From Candidatus Nitrospira kreftii (GTDB lineage Bacteria > Nitrospirota > Nitrospiria > Nitrospirales > Nitrospiraceae), in assembly GCA_014058405.1 (NCBI GenBank), contig CP047423.1, forward strand, positions 806,001 through 870,000: DNA of 64,000 nt. Reading direction: 5' to 3'. The position numbers were made by a program, and so were the translations under genes. Below the pieces are notes generated by a model. The model was not told the origin of the DNA. It saw only the letters and a list, made by a program, of their open reading frames with translations, and searched no databases. Of this stretch, positions 26,901-58,743 are shown one piece after another. How positions within the stretch are numbered: the first letter of the stretch is position 1; each line of letters starts with the position of its first letter.

Positions 26901-28122
26901 TCCCGTAGTGTATGGGGCTAAAATTAAAATCAAAGACGGCGATCCGGTGGTGGTTGGTCAGAAATTAGTTGAATGGGATCCCTATTCTCTGACAATTCTG
27001 ACTGAGGTTGGCGGGAAGGTTGCTTATGGTGACATCGTCGAAGGTGTCACGATGAAGGACGAGTTCGACGAAGTGACCGGTTTGTCGCGTAAGGTCATCA
27101 TTGAGCACAGCGGTCAGACTCTTCGCCCTCGCGTGTCTATTAAAGACGAAAGCGGGAAGACGGCCAAGGTTACTGGTGGCTCGAATGCGGTCGCGAGATA
27201 CTTGCTGCCGGTTGGGGCTCATATCTTCGTTGAGAAGGGTGCCACAGTGTTTCCCGGAGATGTGTTGGCGAAGATTCCTCGTGAAACGACGAAGACTAAG
27301 GATATCACTGGTGGCCTTCCGCGCGTGGTGGAGCTCTTTGAGGCTCGGAAACCAAAAGAGCAGGCCGTCATCACCGAGATTGATGGAGAAGTCTCATACG
27401 GCGGATTCGTGAAAGGTCAACGCAAAGTCCTTGTCGACAATAAGATGGGCGACGTGAAGGAATACTTTATTCCAAAAGGTAAGCACGTCAATGTGCATGA
27501 AGGTGATTGGGTTCGCGCTGGGGAACCACTGATGGATGGATCAGCAAATCCTCATGACATCCTCGACGTGCTTGGACCCAATGAATTGCAAAAGTATCTC
27601 GTGGACGAAGTGCAGGACGTATATCGACTGCAGGGCGTTTCGATTAATGACAAGCACATTGAAATCATCGTGAGGCAAATGTTGCGCAAGGTCCGTATCG
27701 AAGACCCTGGCGACACGCAGTTTTTACCAGGTAGCCAAGTTAGCAAGAGTGTGTTTGAAAAAGAGAATGAACGAGTCCTGGAGAAAGATGGAACCCCGGC
27801 TTTAGGTAAGCCCGTGTTGCTCGGTATCACGAAGGCTGCCTTGACTACCGACAGCTTTATTTCAGCGGCGTCCTTCCAGGAGACAACGAGAGTCCTTACG
27901 GAAGCAGCGATCAACGGGCGTGAGGACAACCTGTTAGGCTTGAAGGAAAATGTCATTGTGGGGCGACTGATTCCAGCGGGGTCTGGATTTGAAGAGTACC
28001 GTGACACGTTCGTAATTAGTGAAAAAGTGGAATCCGTGCCAGTGGGTGCAGGTTCGGCTGTGACTCCGATATCACCAGATGCCACGATTCCAGCTGTTTC
28101 TGGAGAAACTTCCAGGTCATGA
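23935..28122 (+). CDS. rpoC: DNA-directed RNA polymerase subunit beta-prime
   Basis: The largest polymerase subunit (1395 aa) is complete. The N-terminal zinc site is [20 protein letters not shown], the active-site magnesium loop is [12 protein letters not shown], and the second zinc cluster is [13 protein letters not shown]. The TTG at 23935 was chosen as start because AGGAGG ends 8 bases before it and the protein then begins (M)[12 protein letters not shown]; another TTG at 23893 would add 14 unconserved residues. The gene ends 22 bases before the strong promoter of the str operon. Confidence 0.98.
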
Positions 28123-28143
28123 CGAAAAGGGAATCTTCTTTAC

Positions 28144-28172
28144 TTGACAGCGCGATGCTTCATCACTATAAT
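28144..28172 (+). promoter_or_regulatory. Perfect-consensus sigma-70 promoter upstream of rpsL
   Basis: TTGACA at 28144-28149, exactly 17 bases, then TATAAT at 28167-28172. Both hexamers are the full consensus. It lies between rpoC and rpsL and should drive rpsL-rpsG-fusA-tuf and perhaps the ribosomal operons beyond. Confidence 0.9.
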
Positions 28173-28230
28173 TCTGCGGCTTTGGGCTTGATTGAAGTTG
28201 TTTTTTGGTTTTGAAGAGGGTCTAAATCTG

Positions 28231-28602
28231 ATGCCGACGATTAATCAGCTGGTTCGAAAAGGGCGAGTCTTTATAAAGGCAAAAACAAAGAGCCCTGCTC
28301 TGAAGTCCTGCCCACAAAAGAGAGGTGTCTGCCTCAGGGTCTATACCACAACGCCTAAAAAGCCAAATTCGGCTTTGCGGAAAGTGGCGCGTGTGCGTCT
28401 CACGAATGGCATGGAAGTGACGACCTATATTCCTGGAGTCGGGCATAATCTTCAGGAACACTCGATTGTCCTCGTGCGTGGAGGGCGAGTCAAAGACCTT
28501 CCCGGTGTACGGTACCACTTAGTTCGTGGCGCCCTGGATGCAGTGGGTGTGGCTGACCGAAAGCAGAGTCGCTCGAAGTATGGAGCGAAGCGGCCTAAGT
28601 AG
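28231..28602 (+). CDS. rpsL: 30S ribosomal protein S12
   Basis: S12 (123 aa) sits at the decoding centre. It begins [12 protein letters not shown], with the decoding loops [13 protein letters not shown] and [13 protein letters not shown]; the lysines that confer streptomycin sensitivity are present. The ATG at 28231 was chosen by homology over an in-frame upstream start at 28192. Confidence 0.98.
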
Positions 28603-28651
28603 TTCTGACCGCTTGTACGATTCTAACAAAGATTTTATTTAATAGGATAAT

Positions 28652-29122
28652 ATGCCACGCAGTAGATTTTTAGGCCAACGAGAAGTGCTTCCTGATGTCC
28701 GATATCGCGACAAGCTTGTCGGGAAGTTCATTAATACGCTGATGAGTAACGGGAAAAAGAGTACTACCGAGCGGATATGTTATGGGGCATTCGATGTCAT
28801 CCAGGAAAAAACTGGCGGCGACCCGTTGAAAGTATTCAAAGCTGCGGTGGACAACGTGAAGCCGATTGTTGAAGTCAAATCTCGTCGAGTTGGCGGAGCG
28901 TCCTATCAGGTTCCGGTTGAAATTAGGCCGGCTCGTCGAGTGTCATTAGCGCTCCGTTGGTTGTCGCAGTTTGCGCGTACGCGCGGTGGTAAAAGCATGC
29001 GTGAAAAGCTCGCAGCCGAGTTGATGGATGCATCGAACAATACCGGGGCTGCGGTAAAGAAACGGGAAGACGTACATCGGATGGCAGAGGCGAATAAAGC
29101 ATTCGCCCATTATCGTTGGTAG
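28652..29122 (+). CDS. rpsG: 30S ribosomal protein S7
   Basis: S7 (156 aa) nucleates assembly of the 30S head. It begins [18 protein letters not shown] and ends with the conserved [19 protein letters not shown]. It is 49 bases downstream of rpsL. The gap to fusA (113 bases) is unusually structured. Confidence 0.98.
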
Positions 29123-29130
29123 CGTCATTC

Positions 29131-29224
29131 TGTGCTGCAGTTGAGCCGCGCTGCGATCCGCAGACCGAAGTGCTTCTACATCGCAGCAGCGTGATGCGGC
29201 TTGATCTGCAGCACAAGTGTTTTT
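29131..29224 (+). promoter_or_regulatory. Long imperfect hairpin with T-run ahead of fusA
   Basis: Three nested paired blocks are visible: TGTGCTGCAG (29131-29140) with CTGCAGCACA (29206-29215), AGCCGC (29144-29149) with GCGGCT (29196-29201), and GCTGCGAT (29150-29157) with ATCGCAGC (29180-29187). The stem totals 24 bp, with bulges. TTTTT follows at 29220-29224, and the fusA start is 11 bases later. It could be an attenuator or a protein-binding leader. Confidence 0.65.
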
Positions 29225-29235
29225 AGGGGATTGAA

Positions 29236-31305
29236 GTGGCTCGTCAAACATCATTAGAGCATACGAGAAACATCGGCATCATGGCTCACATAGATGCGGG
29301 GAAGACTACAACCACCGAGCGAATTCTCTATTATACCGGCATGACCCATAAATTGGGCGAGGTTCATGAGGGTGCCGCTACGATGGATTGGATGGAGCAG
29401 GAGCGGGAGCGGGGTATCACTATTACAGCCGCTGCCACGACCTGTTTCTGGCGGGAACATCGAATCAATATTATTGATACCCCTGGGCACGTGGATTTTA
29501 CGATCGAGGTGGAGCGTTCCTTGCGGGTCCTCGATGGCGCGGTGGCAGCATTCGATTCTGTGCAAGGAGTTGAGCCTCAGTCTGAGACGGTTTGGCGTCA
29601 AGCTGATAAGTATAATGTTCCACGCATCGCTTTTATGAATAAGATGGATCGGATTGGAGCCGATTTTTACGGCAGCGTCCAGTCCATTATTGATCGACTT
29701 GGGGCAACGCCGGTTCCGATTCAAATTCCAATCGGCCGTGAGGCTGAATTTAGAGGTTCGGTCGATCTGGTCAAGATGAAGGGGTACTTCTACGACGACG
29801 AGACATTGGGTGCGAAGTATAAAATTGGTGAGATTCCTGATGATCTCCTTGTCCAGGCAAAAGAGTATCGCGAAAAACTGCTCGACGCAGTCGCTGAATT
29901 TGATGACCAGGTGATGGAAAAGTATTTGAGTGGTCATTCGTTGACAGAAGAAGAAGTGATGCGTGCGATCCGAGCTGGGACCATTTCGATGAAAATTACT
30001 CCGGTGCTCTGCGGATCCGCCTTCAAGAATAAAGGGGTGCAGCAGTTGTTGGATGGTGTGGTCGACTATCTGCCGTCACCGCTGGATGTTCCTGCCGTGA
30101 AGGGGATAGAGCCTGTCGGTAATAAGGAAGTGGAGCGGAGGTCGGATGACAGCGAGCCGTTCGCGGCGTTGGCGTTCAAGATCATGTCTGATCCATTTGC
30201 TGGCCAGCTGACATTTTTCCGAGTCTATTCTGGAACTCTGAAGACTGGGACGCCGGTTCTCAATGTGACGAAGGGTACAAAGGATCGGATCGGGCGTCTC
30301 CTGAAGATGCACGCCAATAAACGGGAAGAGATCGATGAGGTCCATGCAGGGGACATCGTCGCGGCTGTGGGACTCAAGGGAGCGACCACTGGAGATACAT
30401 TGGCGGATGAAAAGCAGCCGGTGTTGCTTGAAGTTATGAAGTTCCCTGAGCCGGTCATTGCGATGGCGATTGAGCCAAAAACAAAGCAAGATCAAGAAAA
30501 GATGGGCTTTGCGCTCCAGAAGCTGGCGCAGGAGGACCCATCATTCCGTGTGCGGACGGATGAAGAAACGGCGCAGACGATCATTGCCGGGATGGGAGAG
30601 CTCCATCTTGAGATTATTGTTGATCGGATGCTGCGTGAGTTTAAAGTCGAAGCCAACGTCGGAAAGCCAGAAGTAGCGTTCAGGGAAACAATCCGACGGA
30701 AGGCCGAGGCTGAATCCAAGTACATCAAGCAGACCGGCGGTCGTGGACAGTATGGTCATGTTGTGCTGACGGTTGAACCATCTGAGCCGGGCAAGGGGCT
30801 GGAATTTGTCAATAAGGTCGTAGGAGGGGCAATTCCTAAAGAGTATGTCCCTGCTATTGAAAAAGGGGTTCGCGAGCGAATGGAGACGGGAGTGGTTGCG
30901 GGATACCCTCTCCGGGACGTGAAGGTGACTGTTATCGATGGTTCCTACCATGACGTTGATTCTAATGAAATGGCGTTCAAGATTGCCGGTTCCATGGGCT
31001 TTGCTGATGCCTGTAAAAAGGCTGATCCGGTCTTGCTTGAGCCCATCATGAAAGTTGAAGTGTTGGTTCCTCAGGAATTTATGGGCGACGTCATTGGCAA
31101 TTTGAACGGGCGGAGGGGCAAGGTTCAAGGTATGAAGGTCAGGGCTGGCGCGCAAGCAATCGATGCTGCAGTGCCCTTGATGGAAATGTTTGGCTATGCG
31201 ACTGACCTTCGGTCTCGGACGCAAGGCCGGGCTACCTATAGTATGGAGTTTGAGCGGTACGACCAAGTGCCGAAGAATATTGCGGAAGCCATCATTAAGA
31301 AATAG
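29236..31305 (+). CDS. fusA: Elongation factor G
   Basis: EF-G (689 aa) is the GTPase driving translocation. Motifs are [22 protein letters not shown] and NKMDR; the C-terminal domains IV-V include GGRGQYGHV. The start is GTG at 29236 with AGGGGA upstream. A single fusA is present in this window and sits in the conserved rpsL-rpsG-fusA-tuf order. Confidence 0.98.
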
Positions 31306-31333
31306 TAGTTGGTGAATCAGGGAGGAGCGGGTT

Positions 31334-32539
<1,206 letters not shown>

Positions 32540-32577
32540 GTCGGAACGCGCTCAGTTGATAGATTAGGAGTAACGAC

Positions 32578-32889
32578 GTGAAGGTCGATCAGCGGATTAG
32601 AATTAGATTGAGGGGTTTCGACTATCGGGTGCTCGATCAGTCTGTGAGCGAAATTGTTGAGACTGTTCGACGGAGTGGTGCAAGAGTGGTCGGGCCGATC
32701 CCGCTTCCCACTCGAATTGAAAAGATCACGGTTCAGCGGTCGACACATGCCGATAAGAAGTCGCGTGAACAGTTTGAAATGCGCACGCATAAACGGTTGC
32801 TCGATATCATGGAGCCGACGCCTGAAACGATGGATTCATTGATGAAGCTCAATTTGGCGGCCGGTGTGGACGTAGAGATAAAGTTATAA
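32578..32889 (+). CDS. rpsJ: 30S ribosomal protein S10 (NusE)
   Basis: S10 (103 aa) is a 30S head protein and also the NusG/NusB partner in antitermination. It begins [17 protein letters not shown] from a GTG with AGGAG upstream, and contains [14 protein letters not shown] and [20 protein letters not shown]. It opens the S10 operon directly after tuf; no separate promoter was seen. Confidence 0.98.
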
Positions 32890-32957
32890 GCCCCGAGTGC
32901 TAACGACTGAACTCTAAGGGGCGGCACTCAGGGCGCAACATACAGCATTGGACGAAT

Positions 32958-33578
32958 ATGACAAACGGATTGATTGGAAAGAAACTTGGAATGACGCAAG
33001 TGTTTGACGAGACTCGCTTGACGCCGGTGACTGTCATTGAGGCTGGTCCATGCCGAGTTGTCACTGTGCGGACAAACGAACGAGACCGATACGAGGCGGT
33101 TCAACTTTCGTTCGGTGAAGTGAAGGAGCGTAAGCTTTCAAAGCCGGAACTTGGGCATCTGAAGAAAAATCAAGCGCCAGCCAGCCGCATTTTGCGAGAA
33201 TTTAAGAAAGACGGTGAAACGACGGTGGGACAATTCGTCACGGTCGAGATGTTTAAGAAGGGTGATTGGGTTGATGTGATCGGCGTTTCAAAGGGTAAGG
33301 GGTTTCAGGGTGTTGTGAAGCGACATCACTATGCCGGTGGGCCTGAATCGCATGGGTCCATGTTTCATCGGGCTCCTGGGTCAATTGGAGCCAGTTCATT
33401 CCCATCTCGTGTCTGGAAGGGGAAAACGCTGCCAGGTCATATGGGGTCGGAACGGGTTACCGTTCATCGGTTGAAGGTCATTGAGTCACGGTTGGACGAA
33501 AATCTCCTATTTGTGCGCGGTGCGGTTCCCGGGGCGGCGAATGGGATCGTTGTCGTGCGGAAGTCTAAGAAGAGTTAG
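32958..33578 (+). CDS. rplC: 50S ribosomal protein L3
   Basis: L3 (206 aa) reaches the peptidyl-transferase centre through its long loop. It begins [18 protein letters not shown] and includes [20 protein letters not shown] and [13 protein letters not shown]. Length is normal. It is two bases ahead of rplD. Confidence 0.98.
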
Positions 33579-33580
33579 AT

Positions 33581-34204
33581 ATGCCTACTATCGATCTGGT
33601 GGATTTGCAGAAAAAGAAAGTTGGAACGGTCGATCTGTCTCCGGTAGTCTTTGGGTGCGAGCCTCGCGCCACTCTGGTGCATGAAGCAGTGATTATGCAG
33701 CGTGCTTGCGAGCGTAGGGGGACAGCTTCGACTTTACGGCGAGGTGAGGTAAGTGGGTCTGGTAAAAAGCCCTGGAAGCAAAAGCATACAGGTCGTGCTC
33801 GAGCCGGCTCGCTTCGTTCTCCAGTCTGGCGTCATGGAGGGAGTGTATTTGGACCGAAGCCAAGAAGTTACGCCTATTCAATGCCCAAGAAAAAGTATCG
33901 GGCTGCTCTCCAGAGTGCGTTATCGGCTAAGGTAGCTGAGGAAAAGTTGTTTGTGGTTTCCGATCTTTCTCTGCAGCAGCCAAGGACGAAACTGTTGGCT
34001 CAAGCCTTGAGGCAATTCAGTGGAGGCGCTCACACCCTGGTAATCATTGGCAAATCACAGTCTGAGGTCTTGCAAGCCGCAGAAAACCTGAATGACGTTA
34101 AAGTTCTCAGTGCAGATCAATTGAACGTCTACGACATTGTTCGTGCTCACGTGATTCTGATCTCCGAGCGAGAGCTTGGTTCCGTGAGTGAGGCCTGGTC
34201 ATGA
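33581..34204 (+). CDS. rplD: 50S ribosomal protein L4
   Basis: L4 (207 aa) lines the peptide exit tunnel with a long basic loop, seen here as GSGKKPWKQKHTGRARAGSL. In some bacteria L4 also represses the S10 operon; no leader structure could be confirmed here. The stop overlaps the rplW start by four bases. Confidence 0.97.
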   Translation: MPTIDLVDLQKKKVGTVDLSPVVFGCEPRATLVHEAVIMQRACERRGTASTLRRGEVSGSGKKPWKQKHTGRARAGSLRSPVWRHGGSVFGPKPRSYAYSMPKKKYRAALQSALSAKVAEEKLFVVSDLSLQQPRTKLLAQALRQFSGGAHTLVIIGKSQSEVLQAAENLNDVKVLSADQLNVYDIVRAHVILISERELGSVSEAWS

Positions 34205-34494
34205 AGATCGATATGCATAGAGTCTTGGTTCAACCGTTACTGACTGAAAAGATTACCGGACTTCGAGAAAAAACCAATACCGTGGGTTTCGTGGTTCATC
34301 CCGAAGCGAATCGAGTTCAGATCAAGCAAGCGGTCGAGGCTCTGCTCAAGGTTAAGGTTGAGAAGGTCAATCTCATGAATGTTCGTGGGAAGGTTAAGCG
34401 GCTCGGTCGTTTTTCTGGTAAACGTTCTGATTGGAAGAAAGCTTTTGTCACACTTAAAGAAGGTGAAAAGCTGGAGATGTACGAAAGCGCCTAA
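34201..34494 (+). CDS. rplW: 50S ribosomal protein L23
   Basis: L23 (97 aa) sits at the tunnel exit and docks trigger factor and SRP. Conserved LVQPLLTEKITGLREKTN and VEKVNLMNVRGKVKRLGR are present. ATGA overlap with rplD implies coupled translation. Confidence 0.97.
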   Translation: MKIDMHRVLVQPLLTEKITGLREKTNTVGFVVHPEANRVQIKQAVEALLKVKVEKVNLMNVRGKVKRLGRFSGKRSDWKKAFVTLKEGEKLEMYESA

Positions 34495-34543
34495 TCTTGA
34501 TCTCGGTCTGTTCCGTAGGGTCTAGAGGGTAAAGGGGTATCGC

Positions 34544-35386
34544 ATGAGTTTAAAAGTCTACCGTCCAACATCCGCAGGTCGTCGAGGTATGACGGCCGTG
34601 GTGTCCAAGGAGCTTACTGAAAAAAAGCCGGAAAAGTCATTAACCTCGTTCCATTTGCGAAGCGGCGGCCGAAATAATAATGGACGGATAACTGTTAGAT
34701 TTCGCGGGGGTGGGCATAAGCGGCTATATCGAAAAATTGATTTTCGTCGAGACAAAGTCGGTATTTCAGCCAAGGTTACAGCTATTGAGTATGACCCGAA
34801 TCGATCTGCAAGGATAGCACTGTTGAGCTATCGAGACGGGGAGAAGCGGTATATCTTAGCTCCAGTCGGACTCAGTCTGAACGACGAAGTCCAATCTGGT
34901 CCACAGGCAGAAATCAGACCAGGGAATGCGCTTCCATTGATGAATATGCCGCTTGGTACGACCATTCATAACCTCGAATTGAAGGCTGGGAAGGGTGGTC
35001 AATTGATCCGAAGTGCCGGTGGGTTCGCGCAGGTCATGGGGCGTGACGGTGACTATGTACAGGTTCGACTGAAGTCTGGAGAAATGCGCAGAATCTTGGG
35101 CGTTTGTATGGCGACGGTCGGACAAGTCGGTAATGTGGATCATGAGAATGTCAGTGTCGGAAAAGCTGGACGGGGCCGATGGAAGGGGAAAAGGCCGCAT
35201 GTTCGCGGTGTGGTGATGAACCCGGTCGACCATCCGCATGGAGGGGGCGAAGGGAAATCAGGTCAGGGAAATCCACATCCTGTTTCGCCATGGGGGCTTC
35301 CGACGAAGGGCTACAAGACCAGGCAAAATAAAAAGACCGAGAAGTTTATCATTGCTCGACGAAAGTCAGGAGTGCGCAATGCCTAG
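34544..35386 (+). CDS. rplB: 50S ribosomal protein L2
   Basis: L2 (280 aa) is needed for subunit joining and peptide-bond formation. It begins [17 protein letters not shown] and contains [19 protein letters not shown] and the catalytic-region motif [13 protein letters not shown] with the key His. It overlaps rpsS by eight bases. Confidence 0.98.
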
Positions 35387-56697: not shown

Positions 56698-58676
56698 AAC
56701 CAATAATCTCTCGCGCAGATAGTTTTATGACGACTAGATGCTTCATCAGGGCCTGGGGGCTCGTCTTCTTCGCTCTCACCGTATGTGCGGAGACGCGAGC
56801 TCTTGCTGACAAGACCGAGGCGGTAAAGCAAATCGACATGACACGAGCTGGAGCATCTCAGATGCGATTGCTCGCTCAAACTGTGACCGCTATTGAGGTT
56901 CGCCCCGAAGCAGATCTGGTGACCGTTGTGATCGCCGGCGATGGTCAACTATTTCCTGAGACTAACTTCTTGGACGAATCCCGCTTGGTCATCGATATCC
57001 CAGCTGTGTCCTCCACCCTCAGACGTTCCGTAATCCGGGCCGACCACTATTTACTTAAGAAGATTAGAGTGGGGCACCACGCTGATAAGATTCGGCTGGT
57101 ATTCGATGTTCCAGAACGGCCTATCTATTCGCTAGCCCGAGAAGCCAACAAGGTATTGATTACACTGAAACCGAGTGAACCAAGAGTCCTTTCTGCGATG
57201 GAGACGCGAGTTATTAATAGGGATCAGAGTGTGTCCATGCTTCCTCTCTCGCGAAAACCGAAGTTTGAAGCGAGAGAGCACGTGGCCAGAAAGGCGGCAC
57301 GAATTGTCAGGCCTGCGCAGTCTCAATTCAAGATACAGCGAGCTCAGATGACGGAAGACAGTACTTCAGCAGAGAAGGAGGAGCGATCCGATGACCTTGT
57401 CATTGGGAAAACGCGGTTTGTCGGTCGGCGCATCTCGCTCGACTTCCAGCAAGCGGACATCACCAATATTCTTCGATTGATCGCCGAAGTCAGTGGTTTC
57501 AACATCGTTGTTGGAGAGGGCGTGAAGTCGAAGGTGACGATGAAGATGGTCAATGTGCCATGGGACCAGGCATTGGATATGCTCTTAAAAATGAATGGCC
57601 TCGGCATGTTTCGTCAGGGGAGCATTGTCTGGGTCGATTCGTTGGCAAATCTTTCCAAACAGCAGGACGAAGAGGCACGGGCCAGAGATTCCAAGACGAA
57701 GGCTGAACCGGTGATCGACCGTGTCTTCTACATCAGGCATATCCCGGCGCAGGAGCTGATGCAATCGCTCAGACAGAACATGAGCCCACGCGGCCGGATG
57801 CAATTTAATAATGGAAGTAACGCGTTGGTTGTGCAGGATACGGAATCGCAGTTGACCGTGATTAAGCAGCTTGTCGAAGGGCTCGACCTAGAAGTTCCTC
57901 AGGTTCAGATTGAAGCGCGCATCGTACAGGCTGATACAGTCTATGCCCGCGGGATGGGGATTCAATGGGGGTTTAAGACCTCACAGTTTAATCCGAGCGA
58001 TTTTCATTTGATTGGAAACCCGACCGGAGGGTTTGCCCAAGCTGGCGGAACTGGAGCCACGACGATTGAGAGAACCTTCTTGGTGAATTTGCCTGCTCAG
58101 GTTGGAGGCCTGCCAGCTGTACCAGGCATCGGCTGGACCTTTGGAAAGCTGGCCGATGGATTTGCCTTGGACATGAGGCTATCAGCCGGTGAATTGCTAG
58201 GCTTGAGCAAGGTGATCGCCGCGCCCAAGATTACCACGTTGGACAAACGTGAAGCAAAGATCTCTCAAGGCGAATCAATTCCATTTCAAACGACATCGTT
58301 GCAGGGTACGCAAACAACATTCGTCGATGCGAACCTGGAGTTGAATGTCACGCCACAGATTACCTCACGTGATCCTAGGGAAGAGTATAAAAGAATCATG
58401 CTACGTGTGCGGGCGACTCGCAATGCCGTCGGCGCACGGAGTAACCCAGCTGGGCCTAGTATCGATCGACGAGAAGCGACGACCCAAGTGATCGTGAGAG
58501 ATGGAGAAACCATGGTAATCGGCGGAGTCTTTGTCGATACGCAATCCAACAACGTGCAGGGCGTTCCGTATCTTTCTCGCATGCCCGTCCTCGGTTGGCT
58601 GTTCAAGAACAAGTCTGAATCAGTCGGCAAACAAGAGCTGCTGATTTTCCTCACGCCCAGCATCGTCAAGACCTAG
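56694..58676 (+). CDS. pilQ: Type IV pilus secretin PilQ
   Basis: PilQ (660 aa) forms the outer-membrane pore for the pilus. After a signal peptide (FIRAWGLVFFALTVCAETRA) come one AMIN domain (about 60-165), the secretin/TonB short N-terminal domain (ISLDFQQADITNILRLIAEV), an N1-type domain (VFYIRHIPAQELMQSLRQNM) and the secretin barrel (about 460-655, ending MPVLGWLFKNKSESVGKQEL). Only one AMIN domain is clear. Confidence 0.96.
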   Translation: MKPIISRADSFMTTRCFIRAWGLVFFALTVCAETRALADKTEAVKQIDMTRAGASQMRLLAQTVTAIEVRPEADLVTVVIAGDGQLFPETNFLDESRLVIDIPAVSSTLRRSVIRADHYLLKKIRVGHHADKIRLVFDVPERPIYSLAREANKVLITLKPSEPRVLSAMETRVINRDQSVSMLPLSRKPKFEAREHVARKAARIVRPAQSQFKIQRAQMTEDSTSAEKEERSDDLVIGKTRFVGRRISLDFQQADITNILRLIAEVSGFNIVVGEGVKSKVTMKMVNVPWDQALDMLLKMNGLGMFRQGSIVWVDSLANLSKQQDEEARARDSKTKAEPVIDRVFYIRHIPAQELMQSLRQNMSPRGRMQFNNGSNALVVQDTESQLTVIKQLVEGLDLEVPQVQIEARIVQADTVYARGMGIQWGFKTSQFNPSDFHLIGNPTGGFAQAGGTGATTIERTFLVNLPAQVGGLPAVPGIGWTFGKLADGFALDMRLSAGELLGLSKVIAAPKITTLDKREAKISQGESIPFQTTSLQGTQTTFVDANLELNVTPQITSRDPREEYKRIMLRVRATRNAVGARSNPAGPSIDRREATTQVIVRDGETMVIGGVFVDTQSNNVQGVPYLSRMPVLGWLFKNKSESVGKQELLIFLTPSIVKT

Positions 58677-58700: not shown

Positions 58701-58743
58701 AAAAGGGCGGGGGGACGCAAACCAGCGTCTCCCCGCCCTTTTT
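58701..58743 (+). terminator. Strong intrinsic terminator after pilQ
   Basis: GC-rich stem AAGGGCGGGGGGACGC pairs with GCGTCTCCCCGCCCTT around an AAACCA loop, followed by a T-run. About 18 paired bases including A-T pairs at the foot. It closes the pil operon. Confidence 0.93.

What the first reader, a model, noticed from the sequence alone, without database searches (positions are those of the whole stretch)
29131..29224. Large structured leader with T-run between rpsG and fusA
A 24-bp imperfect hairpin followed by TTTTT lies 11 bases before the fusA start, inside an operon where no terminator is expected. It could attenuate fusA-tuf relative to rpsL-rpsG, or bind a ribosomal protein or EF-G.
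Basis: partly seen in the sequence, partly recalled or inferred. Interest (0 to 1): 0.5.

Follow-up and report, generated by a model that had tools for sequence, protein, structure and literature searches.

The report
Conserved terminator-like hairpin before fusA
In Nitrospira and its relatives the messenger RNA between the genes for ribosomal protein S7 and elongation factor G holds a conserved hairpin with a run of U's, most likely a partial transcription stop (attenuator) or a protein-binding switch that sets how much elongation factor is made; it is a new sequence family at a spot where a comparable control site has been predicted in streptococci.

Summary
A long hairpin (29131-29215, extendable to 29219) followed by T5 (29220-29224) fills the 113-nt rpsG-fusA spacer of a Nitrospira genome. 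No other T5 run of the 133 in the window abuts so stable a hairpin. The structure is conserved: 12 of 24 pairs show double changes, covariation 0.270 against 0.211 +- 0.006 shuffled, one copy per genome, before fusA, in 60 of the 62 listed genomes of the family. All 91 distinct family spacers carry T4-8, 82 of them 5 nt after the stem core by pattern. In a sister family only the stem base (RUGCUGCAG/YUGCAGCAY) and a looser U-rich tail persist, in part of the genomes. A full sigma70-consensus promoter precedes rpsL, exact in 88 of 91. No Rfam match; no consistent resemblance to the E. coli S7 site or 16S rRNA. Best reading: a partial or regulated attenuator setting fusA-tuf output relative to rpsL-rpsG; protein-binding translational control, mRNA processing and a U-rich translation enhancer remain live rivals. 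An attenuator here was predicted in streptococci, and 3'-end data show ends there. Termination in Nitrospira is not shown.

The parts
28144..28172 (+). sigma70-type promoter TTGACA-17-TATAAT before rpsL, full consensus
   Evidence: exact in 88 of 91 distinct family loci, one mismatch in the other 3
28231..28602 (+). rpsL (S12); start codon chosen by eye inside the ORF listed from 28192
28652..29122 (+). rpsG (S7)
29126..29129 (+). weak 5' extension of the stem (CATT), pairs with AGTG 29216-29219
   Evidence: MFE; only partly kept in relatives
29131..29140 (+). 5' arm of the conserved outer stem (UGUGCUGCAG)
29141..29149 (+). 5' arm of the middle stem
29150..29157 (+). 5' arm of the apical stem (GCUGCGAU)
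29180..29187 (+). 3' arm of the apical stem (AUCGCAGC)
29196..29204 (+). 3' arm of the middle stem; U29205 is bulged
29206..29215 (+). 3' arm of the conserved outer stem (CUGCAGCACA)
29220..29224 (+). U tract; T4 or longer in 91 of 91 distinct family spacers
29225..29229 (+). AGGGG, Shine-Dalgarno-like sequence of fusA
   Evidence: read; inference
29236..31305 (+). fusA (EF-G), GTG start
31334..32539 (+). tuf (EF-Tu)

Best explanation
A cis-acting RNA element of the str operon. Transcription starts at the full-consensus promoter before rpsL; at the rpsG-fusA junction the nascent RNA folds into a long hairpin whose base lies next to a U tract, causing a fraction of RNA polymerases to pause or terminate, so that fusA-tuf and what follows are made at a set or regulated ratio to rpsL-rpsG. 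Because the 5' arm begins about 9 nt after the rpsG stop codon, a ribosome finishing rpsG would cover the base of the stem and favour readthrough, tying EF-G output to S7 translation. Shown: the hairpin, its covariation, the U tract at nearly fixed spacing in the family, its unique position, and the promoter sequence. Inferred: that the promoter is used, partial termination, the ribosome-coupled switch, and the physiological purpose.
For: Covariation 0.270 against 0.211 +- 0.006 in shuffles (0 of 500 as high) and at most 0.095 when slid; 12 of 24 pairs changed on both sides. T4-8 in 91 of 91 distinct family spacers, 82 of 91 exactly 5 nt after the stem core by pattern; in the 30 nt before rpsG the longest T-run is 3 or less in 81 of 91. 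Lowest energy of the 133 T5-abutting hairpins scored on both strands of the window. In the window the MFE stem reaches the U tract. On the + strand from 28100 to 34600 the only promoter-like site within two mismatches of TTGACA-N16-18-TATAAT is the exact one before rpsL, so the downstream genes appear to depend on polymerases passing this site. 5' arm 9 nt after the rpsG stop in 72 of 91 by pattern match. [quoted passage not shown] that this is Streptococcus pneumoniae is recalled).
Against: In MFEs of the RNA up to the U tract the last pair is 3-5 nt away in 51 of 91 and 0-2 nt in 40 of 91, whereas an ordinary terminator in the same window (58739) has its U run directly after a 34-nt GC hairpin. 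Sister-family spacers that keep the stem base have only a loose U-rich tail (100 of 160 bases T in 20 chosen spacers). T-runs of 4 or more also occur before rpsL, in 25 of the 39 loci where its start was located (52 not located), and the window's own rpsG upstream has TTTT, so U-rich stretches before ribosome sites are not unique to fusA. The U tract sits right before the Shine-Dalgarno sequence and could serve translation. No competing antiterminator stood out (not exhaustive). Strong termination would starve tuf and the r-protein genes behind it. The stem base is conserved in sequence beyond what a terminator needs.
Confidence: 0.46

Rival explanations
1. Protein-bound translational control: a str-operon product, S7 most likely, or EF-G or S12, binds the sequence-conserved stem base and represses or couples fusA translation; termination plays no part.
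For: The stem base RUGCUGCAG/YUGCAGCAY is conserved in sequence as well as pairing across two families although the interior is replaced. It is the best outer helix in 14 of 38 sister-family spacers tested, ending 14-23 nt before fusA in 13 of them and 28 nt in L213 (1 to 21 of 200 mononucleotide shuffles as good, each). In one sister genus the spacer can pair with the fusA Shine-Dalgarno: L209 over 15 bp (0 of 200 shuffles as good); L199, L202, L205 only CCTCC/GGAGG, which shuffles match often (137-156 of 200). In E. coli S7 represses the str operon by binding a spacer (PMC10931766, passages).
Against: No similarity to the E. coli rpsL-rpsG spacer (11 of 11 tested elements p at least 0.28) and none consistent to the 16S S7 region (1 of 11 at p 0.03) or to all of 16S (2 of 11 below 0.05, different places) against mononucleotide shuffles. 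It does not explain the U tract kept in 91 of 91 family spacers. The E. coli site lies before rpsG, not after it.
Confidence: 0.27
2. mRNA processing or stability element: the long duplex is cut by RNase III or shields the fusA-tuf 5' end, giving the two halves different half-lives.
For: Long, nearly perfect duplex at a cistron boundary with variable interior but preserved pairing.
Against: No tool here tests cleavage; a duplex alone would not need a conserved stem-base sequence or a U tract at nearly fixed spacing.
Confidence: 0.15
3. Passive insulator and U-rich translation enhancer: the hairpin only keeps the ribosome site clear and the U tract recruits S1.
For: U tract directly precedes AGGGG; T-runs of 4 or more also precede rpsL in 25 of the 39 loci where its start was located, and the window's rpsG.
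Against: Longest T-run before rpsG is 3 or less in 81 of 91; the Shine-Dalgarno region is not especially open in folds with fusA (median pairing 0.6); the conserved stem sequence is unexplained.
Confidence: 0.09

Closest known systems
Predicted rpsG-fusA attenuator of streptococci ('rpsL-leader', Figure 3b; Naville and Gautheret 2010, PMC2965389)
   Same: Same spacer, terminator-type hairpin with T stretch before fusA, same gene order; 3'-end sequencing shows ends in that spacer (PMC11585934, passages).
   Different: The paper reports no globally conserved sequence or structure among rpsL-leaders and proposes antiterminators, which did not stand out here. The streptococcal sequence was not fetched or aligned, so common origin is untested.
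E. coli S7 (uS7) autoregulatory site of the str operon
   Same: Structured spacer of the same operon next to rpsG.
   Different: It lies between rpsL and rpsG; no sequence similarity to this element. In this family the rpsL-rpsG gap is short, most often about 45 nt (range 18-100, one artefact aside).
rpsL motif of 'Candidatus Pelagibacter ubique' (Meyer et al. 2009, PMC2704228)
   Same: Structured RNA of the same operon that occasionally precedes rpsG or fusA (passages).
   Different: Bulged P1 leading to a three-stem junction according to the paper; the present element is one unbranched hairpin (0 branch points).
Ordinary intrinsic terminators
   Same: GC-rich hairpin followed by a U run.
   Different: Much longer stem, 3-5 nt gap to the U run in 51 of 91 relatives, placed before a translated gene in mid-operon.

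Membership tests
intrinsic terminator / attenuator | stable GC-rich hairpin | tested here: met
intrinsic terminator / attenuator | U run after the hairpin, kept in relatives | tested here: met
   91 of 91 distinct family spacers with T4 or longer; looser in the sister family
intrinsic terminator / attenuator | U run within about 0-2 nt of the stem (criterion recalled) | tested here: inconclusive
   0 in the window by MFE, but 0-2 nt in only 40 of 91
intrinsic terminator / attenuator | competing antiterminator structure | tested here: inconclusive
   none stood out in an uncorrected pairwise covariation list; not exhaustive
intrinsic terminator / attenuator | RNA 3' ends or coverage drop at the U run | not testable with these tools
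   no RNA-seq available
S7 autoregulatory mRNA site | resemblance to the S7 site of 16S rRNA or of E. coli str mRNA | tested here: not met
   11 elements; E. coli sequences were used because no 16S match was returned for the window's genome
S7 autoregulatory mRNA site | binds S7 | not testable with these tools
   -
any Rfam family | match at gathering score in the window, or at E up to 1 in 29050-29300 | tested here: not met
repeat element (REP/MITE-like) | several copies in the genome | tested here: not met
   one copy by DNA and by covariance model

The most novel reading that the evidence does not exclude
A new class of str-operon control RNA, so far seen only in Nitrospirales, in which the conserved stem base senses either the ribosome stopping at the rpsG stop codon or a bound str product, and decides whether polymerase runs on into fusA-tuf, so that elongation-factor supply is tied directly to S7 synthesis.
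Probability: 0.25. Interest if true: 0.62.

Novelty: new variant of a known kind. Interest (0 to 1): 0.42.

Why it matters
How the balance between ribosomal proteins and elongation factors is set outside E. coli is little known; [quoted passage not shown] A conserved, single-copy element at the rpsG-fusA junction gives a concrete place to test this in slow-growing nitrite oxidisers, and the parallel with 3' ends at the same junction in streptococci would suggest that different lineages put a control point at the same spot.

Tried and rejected
Repeat-element origin: rejected, single copy. Known RNA family: none. 16S or E. coli S7-site mimicry: nothing consistent beyond shuffles. U run as a general feature of the operon's ribosome sites: not so before rpsG in the family (81 of 91 with T3 or less), but T4 or more precedes rpsL in 25 of 39 located starts, so this is only partly rejected. 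Antiterminator search by an uncorrected pairwise covariation list: seven non-structural column pairs score above the best structural pair (30-114), scattered and probably lineage effects; the same noise means that raw covariation here should be read with the slid control, not alone.

Spread: the model built on the window's family hit 59 family genomes and 1 sister-family genome of 245 in the phylum, under filters that lose weak matches. Searched over 72 fetched loci it matched 8 at E up to 1. Of 38 sister-family spacers of at least 60 nt, 14 have the same stem base as best outer helix; the other 24 do not by that test, though some (L190, L195, L203, L204, L206, L210) show a related base by eye. 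L226 (46 nt), L214, L217 and L218 (39-45 nt) have short gaps without it; L186, L188, L191 have 177-191 nt, fusA start extrapolated, and no model match.

Rows dropped: A1 used 56 of 91 distinct family spacers; A2 used 18 sister-family spacers chosen for a visible stem base, so its pairing is biased upward, and even so its covariation score is not clearly above shuffles (0.271 against 0.252 +- 0.016, 63 of 500 as high; slid +3 gives 0.219). One search used 128 distinct spacers of suitable length: pairing of the nine outer pairs beats row shuffles for all (0 of 500) and for 77 close rows (2 of 500), not for 37 distant rows (80 of 500). Two family genomes (G121, G308) gave no convincing match; their best fusA-like hits were only 37-38% identical, so the str locus was not found in the held sequence (for G121 no S7 either).

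Literature: searches naming Nitrospira gave 0 papers; some searches gave the papers cited plus others seen only as a listing and not opened.

Full report
Where it is. The window carries rpoB-rpoC-rpsL-rpsG-fusA-tuf followed by the S10-type cluster (names by recognition of the translations). S7 is 98% identical to two records named Nitrospira, so the organism is taken to be a Nitrospira; families are otherwise known only by handles (window family f1, sister family f3).

Observation. Stability exceeds shuffles for the spacer alone (z -2.6) but only mildly with flanks (z -1.2). Of the 133 T5 runs of both strands it has the most stable abutting hairpin. It matches no Rfam family and is single copy.

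Conservation. S7 searches matched 71 of 79 genus genomes and 95 of 97 order genomes (the samples overlap). Loci whose S7 is at least 75% identical give 91 distinct spacers. An alignment of 56 of them folds into one unbranched hairpin of 24 pairs. Pair counts: 95.4% of cells paired; 12 pairs with double changes against 6.9 +- 1.3 shuffled; covariation 0.270 against 0.211 +- 0.006, 0 of 500 as high; slid versions at most 0.095. Shuffles do not remove relatedness, the slid control keeps it; an uncorrected list of all column pairs contains non-structural pairs scoring above structural ones. The covariance model finds the element in 60 of 245 phylum genomes, one match each: 59 of the 62 family genomes listed and one of the sister family. 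Of the three family misses, one has a weak match (E 0.006) directly before fusA with laxer filters, and in the other two no close fusA was found.

The U tract. All 91 family spacers have T4-8 in the last 30 nt, and 82 of 91 have it exactly 5 nt after the stem core by pattern; the longest T-run in the 30 nt before rpsG is 3 or less in 81 of 91, but before rpsL it is 4 or more in 25 of the 39 loci whose start the pattern located. In the window the stem can be extended by CATT/AGTG to touch the U tract; across the family the last pair lies 0-2 nt from it in 40 of 91 and 3-5 nt in 51 of 91. That is compatible with, but not ideal for, intrinsic termination; a textbook terminator exists elsewhere in the window (58739).

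The sister family. There the interior is replaced, yet the base of the stem (RTGCTGCAG / YTGCAGCAY) is recognisable in position and sequence in 14 of 38 spacers by the best-helix test and in further ones by eye. Compensatory changes occur in 3 of 9 pairs of 18 chosen sequences, but the covariation score is not clearly above shuffles (63 of 500 as high): conservation there is mainly of sequence. The tail is U-rich (100 of 160 bases T in 20 chosen spacers, whose overall T content is 27-45%) but not a clean run in most. So the stem base looks like the oldest part and is conserved in sequence more than a terminator needs, which keeps protein-binding models alive.

Operon context. TTGACA-17-TATAAT precedes rpsL (28144-28172), exact in 88 of 91 relatives and one mismatch off in 3. 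On the + strand between 28100 and 34600 no other site lies within two mismatches. If that promoter is the one in use, fusA, tuf and following genes depend on polymerases passing the hairpin, so any termination must be partial or regulated.

Mechanism. The most economical model is an attenuator: partial stop at the U tract, lessened when a ribosome finishing rpsG covers the stem base about 9 nt after the stop codon (72 of 91 by pattern match). The coupling step is inference. Direct support for a stop at this junction exists only in other bacteria: prediction in streptococci (PMC2965389, section 8 read) and a 3'-end peak between rpsG and fusA (PMC11585934, passages). S7 binding, as in E. coli, has no sequence support here.

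Verdict. A real, conserved cis-acting RNA of the Nitrospira str operon, not found in Rfam or in the paper searches; function most likely attenuation of fusA-tuf, confidence a little under one half; new variant of a known kind.

Noticed in passing
28144-28172: Full sigma70 consensus promoter TTGACA-17-TATAAT before rpsL, exact in 88 of 91 distinct relatives; such strict conservation of a full-consensus promoter is striking.
   Followed up: partly
L209, L199, L202, L205 (one genus of the sister family), rpsG-fusA spacers: The spacer can pair a CCTCC stretch with the fusA Shine-Dalgarno GGAGG: 15 bp in L209 (0 of 200 shuffles as good), 5 bp in the other three (matched by 137-156 of 200 shuffles). 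A possible translational switch.
   Followed up: no
L044 and L082 rpsG-fusA spacers (Sorangium and an uncultured delta proteobacterium): Long spacers (333 and 270 nt) share CGACATAAGGATCGGGTTAC and CCCCGACACCCTCTC stretches and fold strongly: perhaps another control RNA at the same junction. L047 (273 nt) also folds strongly but lacks these exact stretches.
   Followed up: no
L053, L080, L084, L101 rpsG-fusA spacers (Bacilli): Simple hairpins in the rpsG-fusA gap of Anoxybacillus, Staphylococcus and Evansella records, the same place as the predicted streptococcal attenuator.
   Followed up: no
58705-58743: Textbook intrinsic terminator, 34-nt GC hairpin followed by T5, after the ORF ending at 58676.
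   Followed up: no
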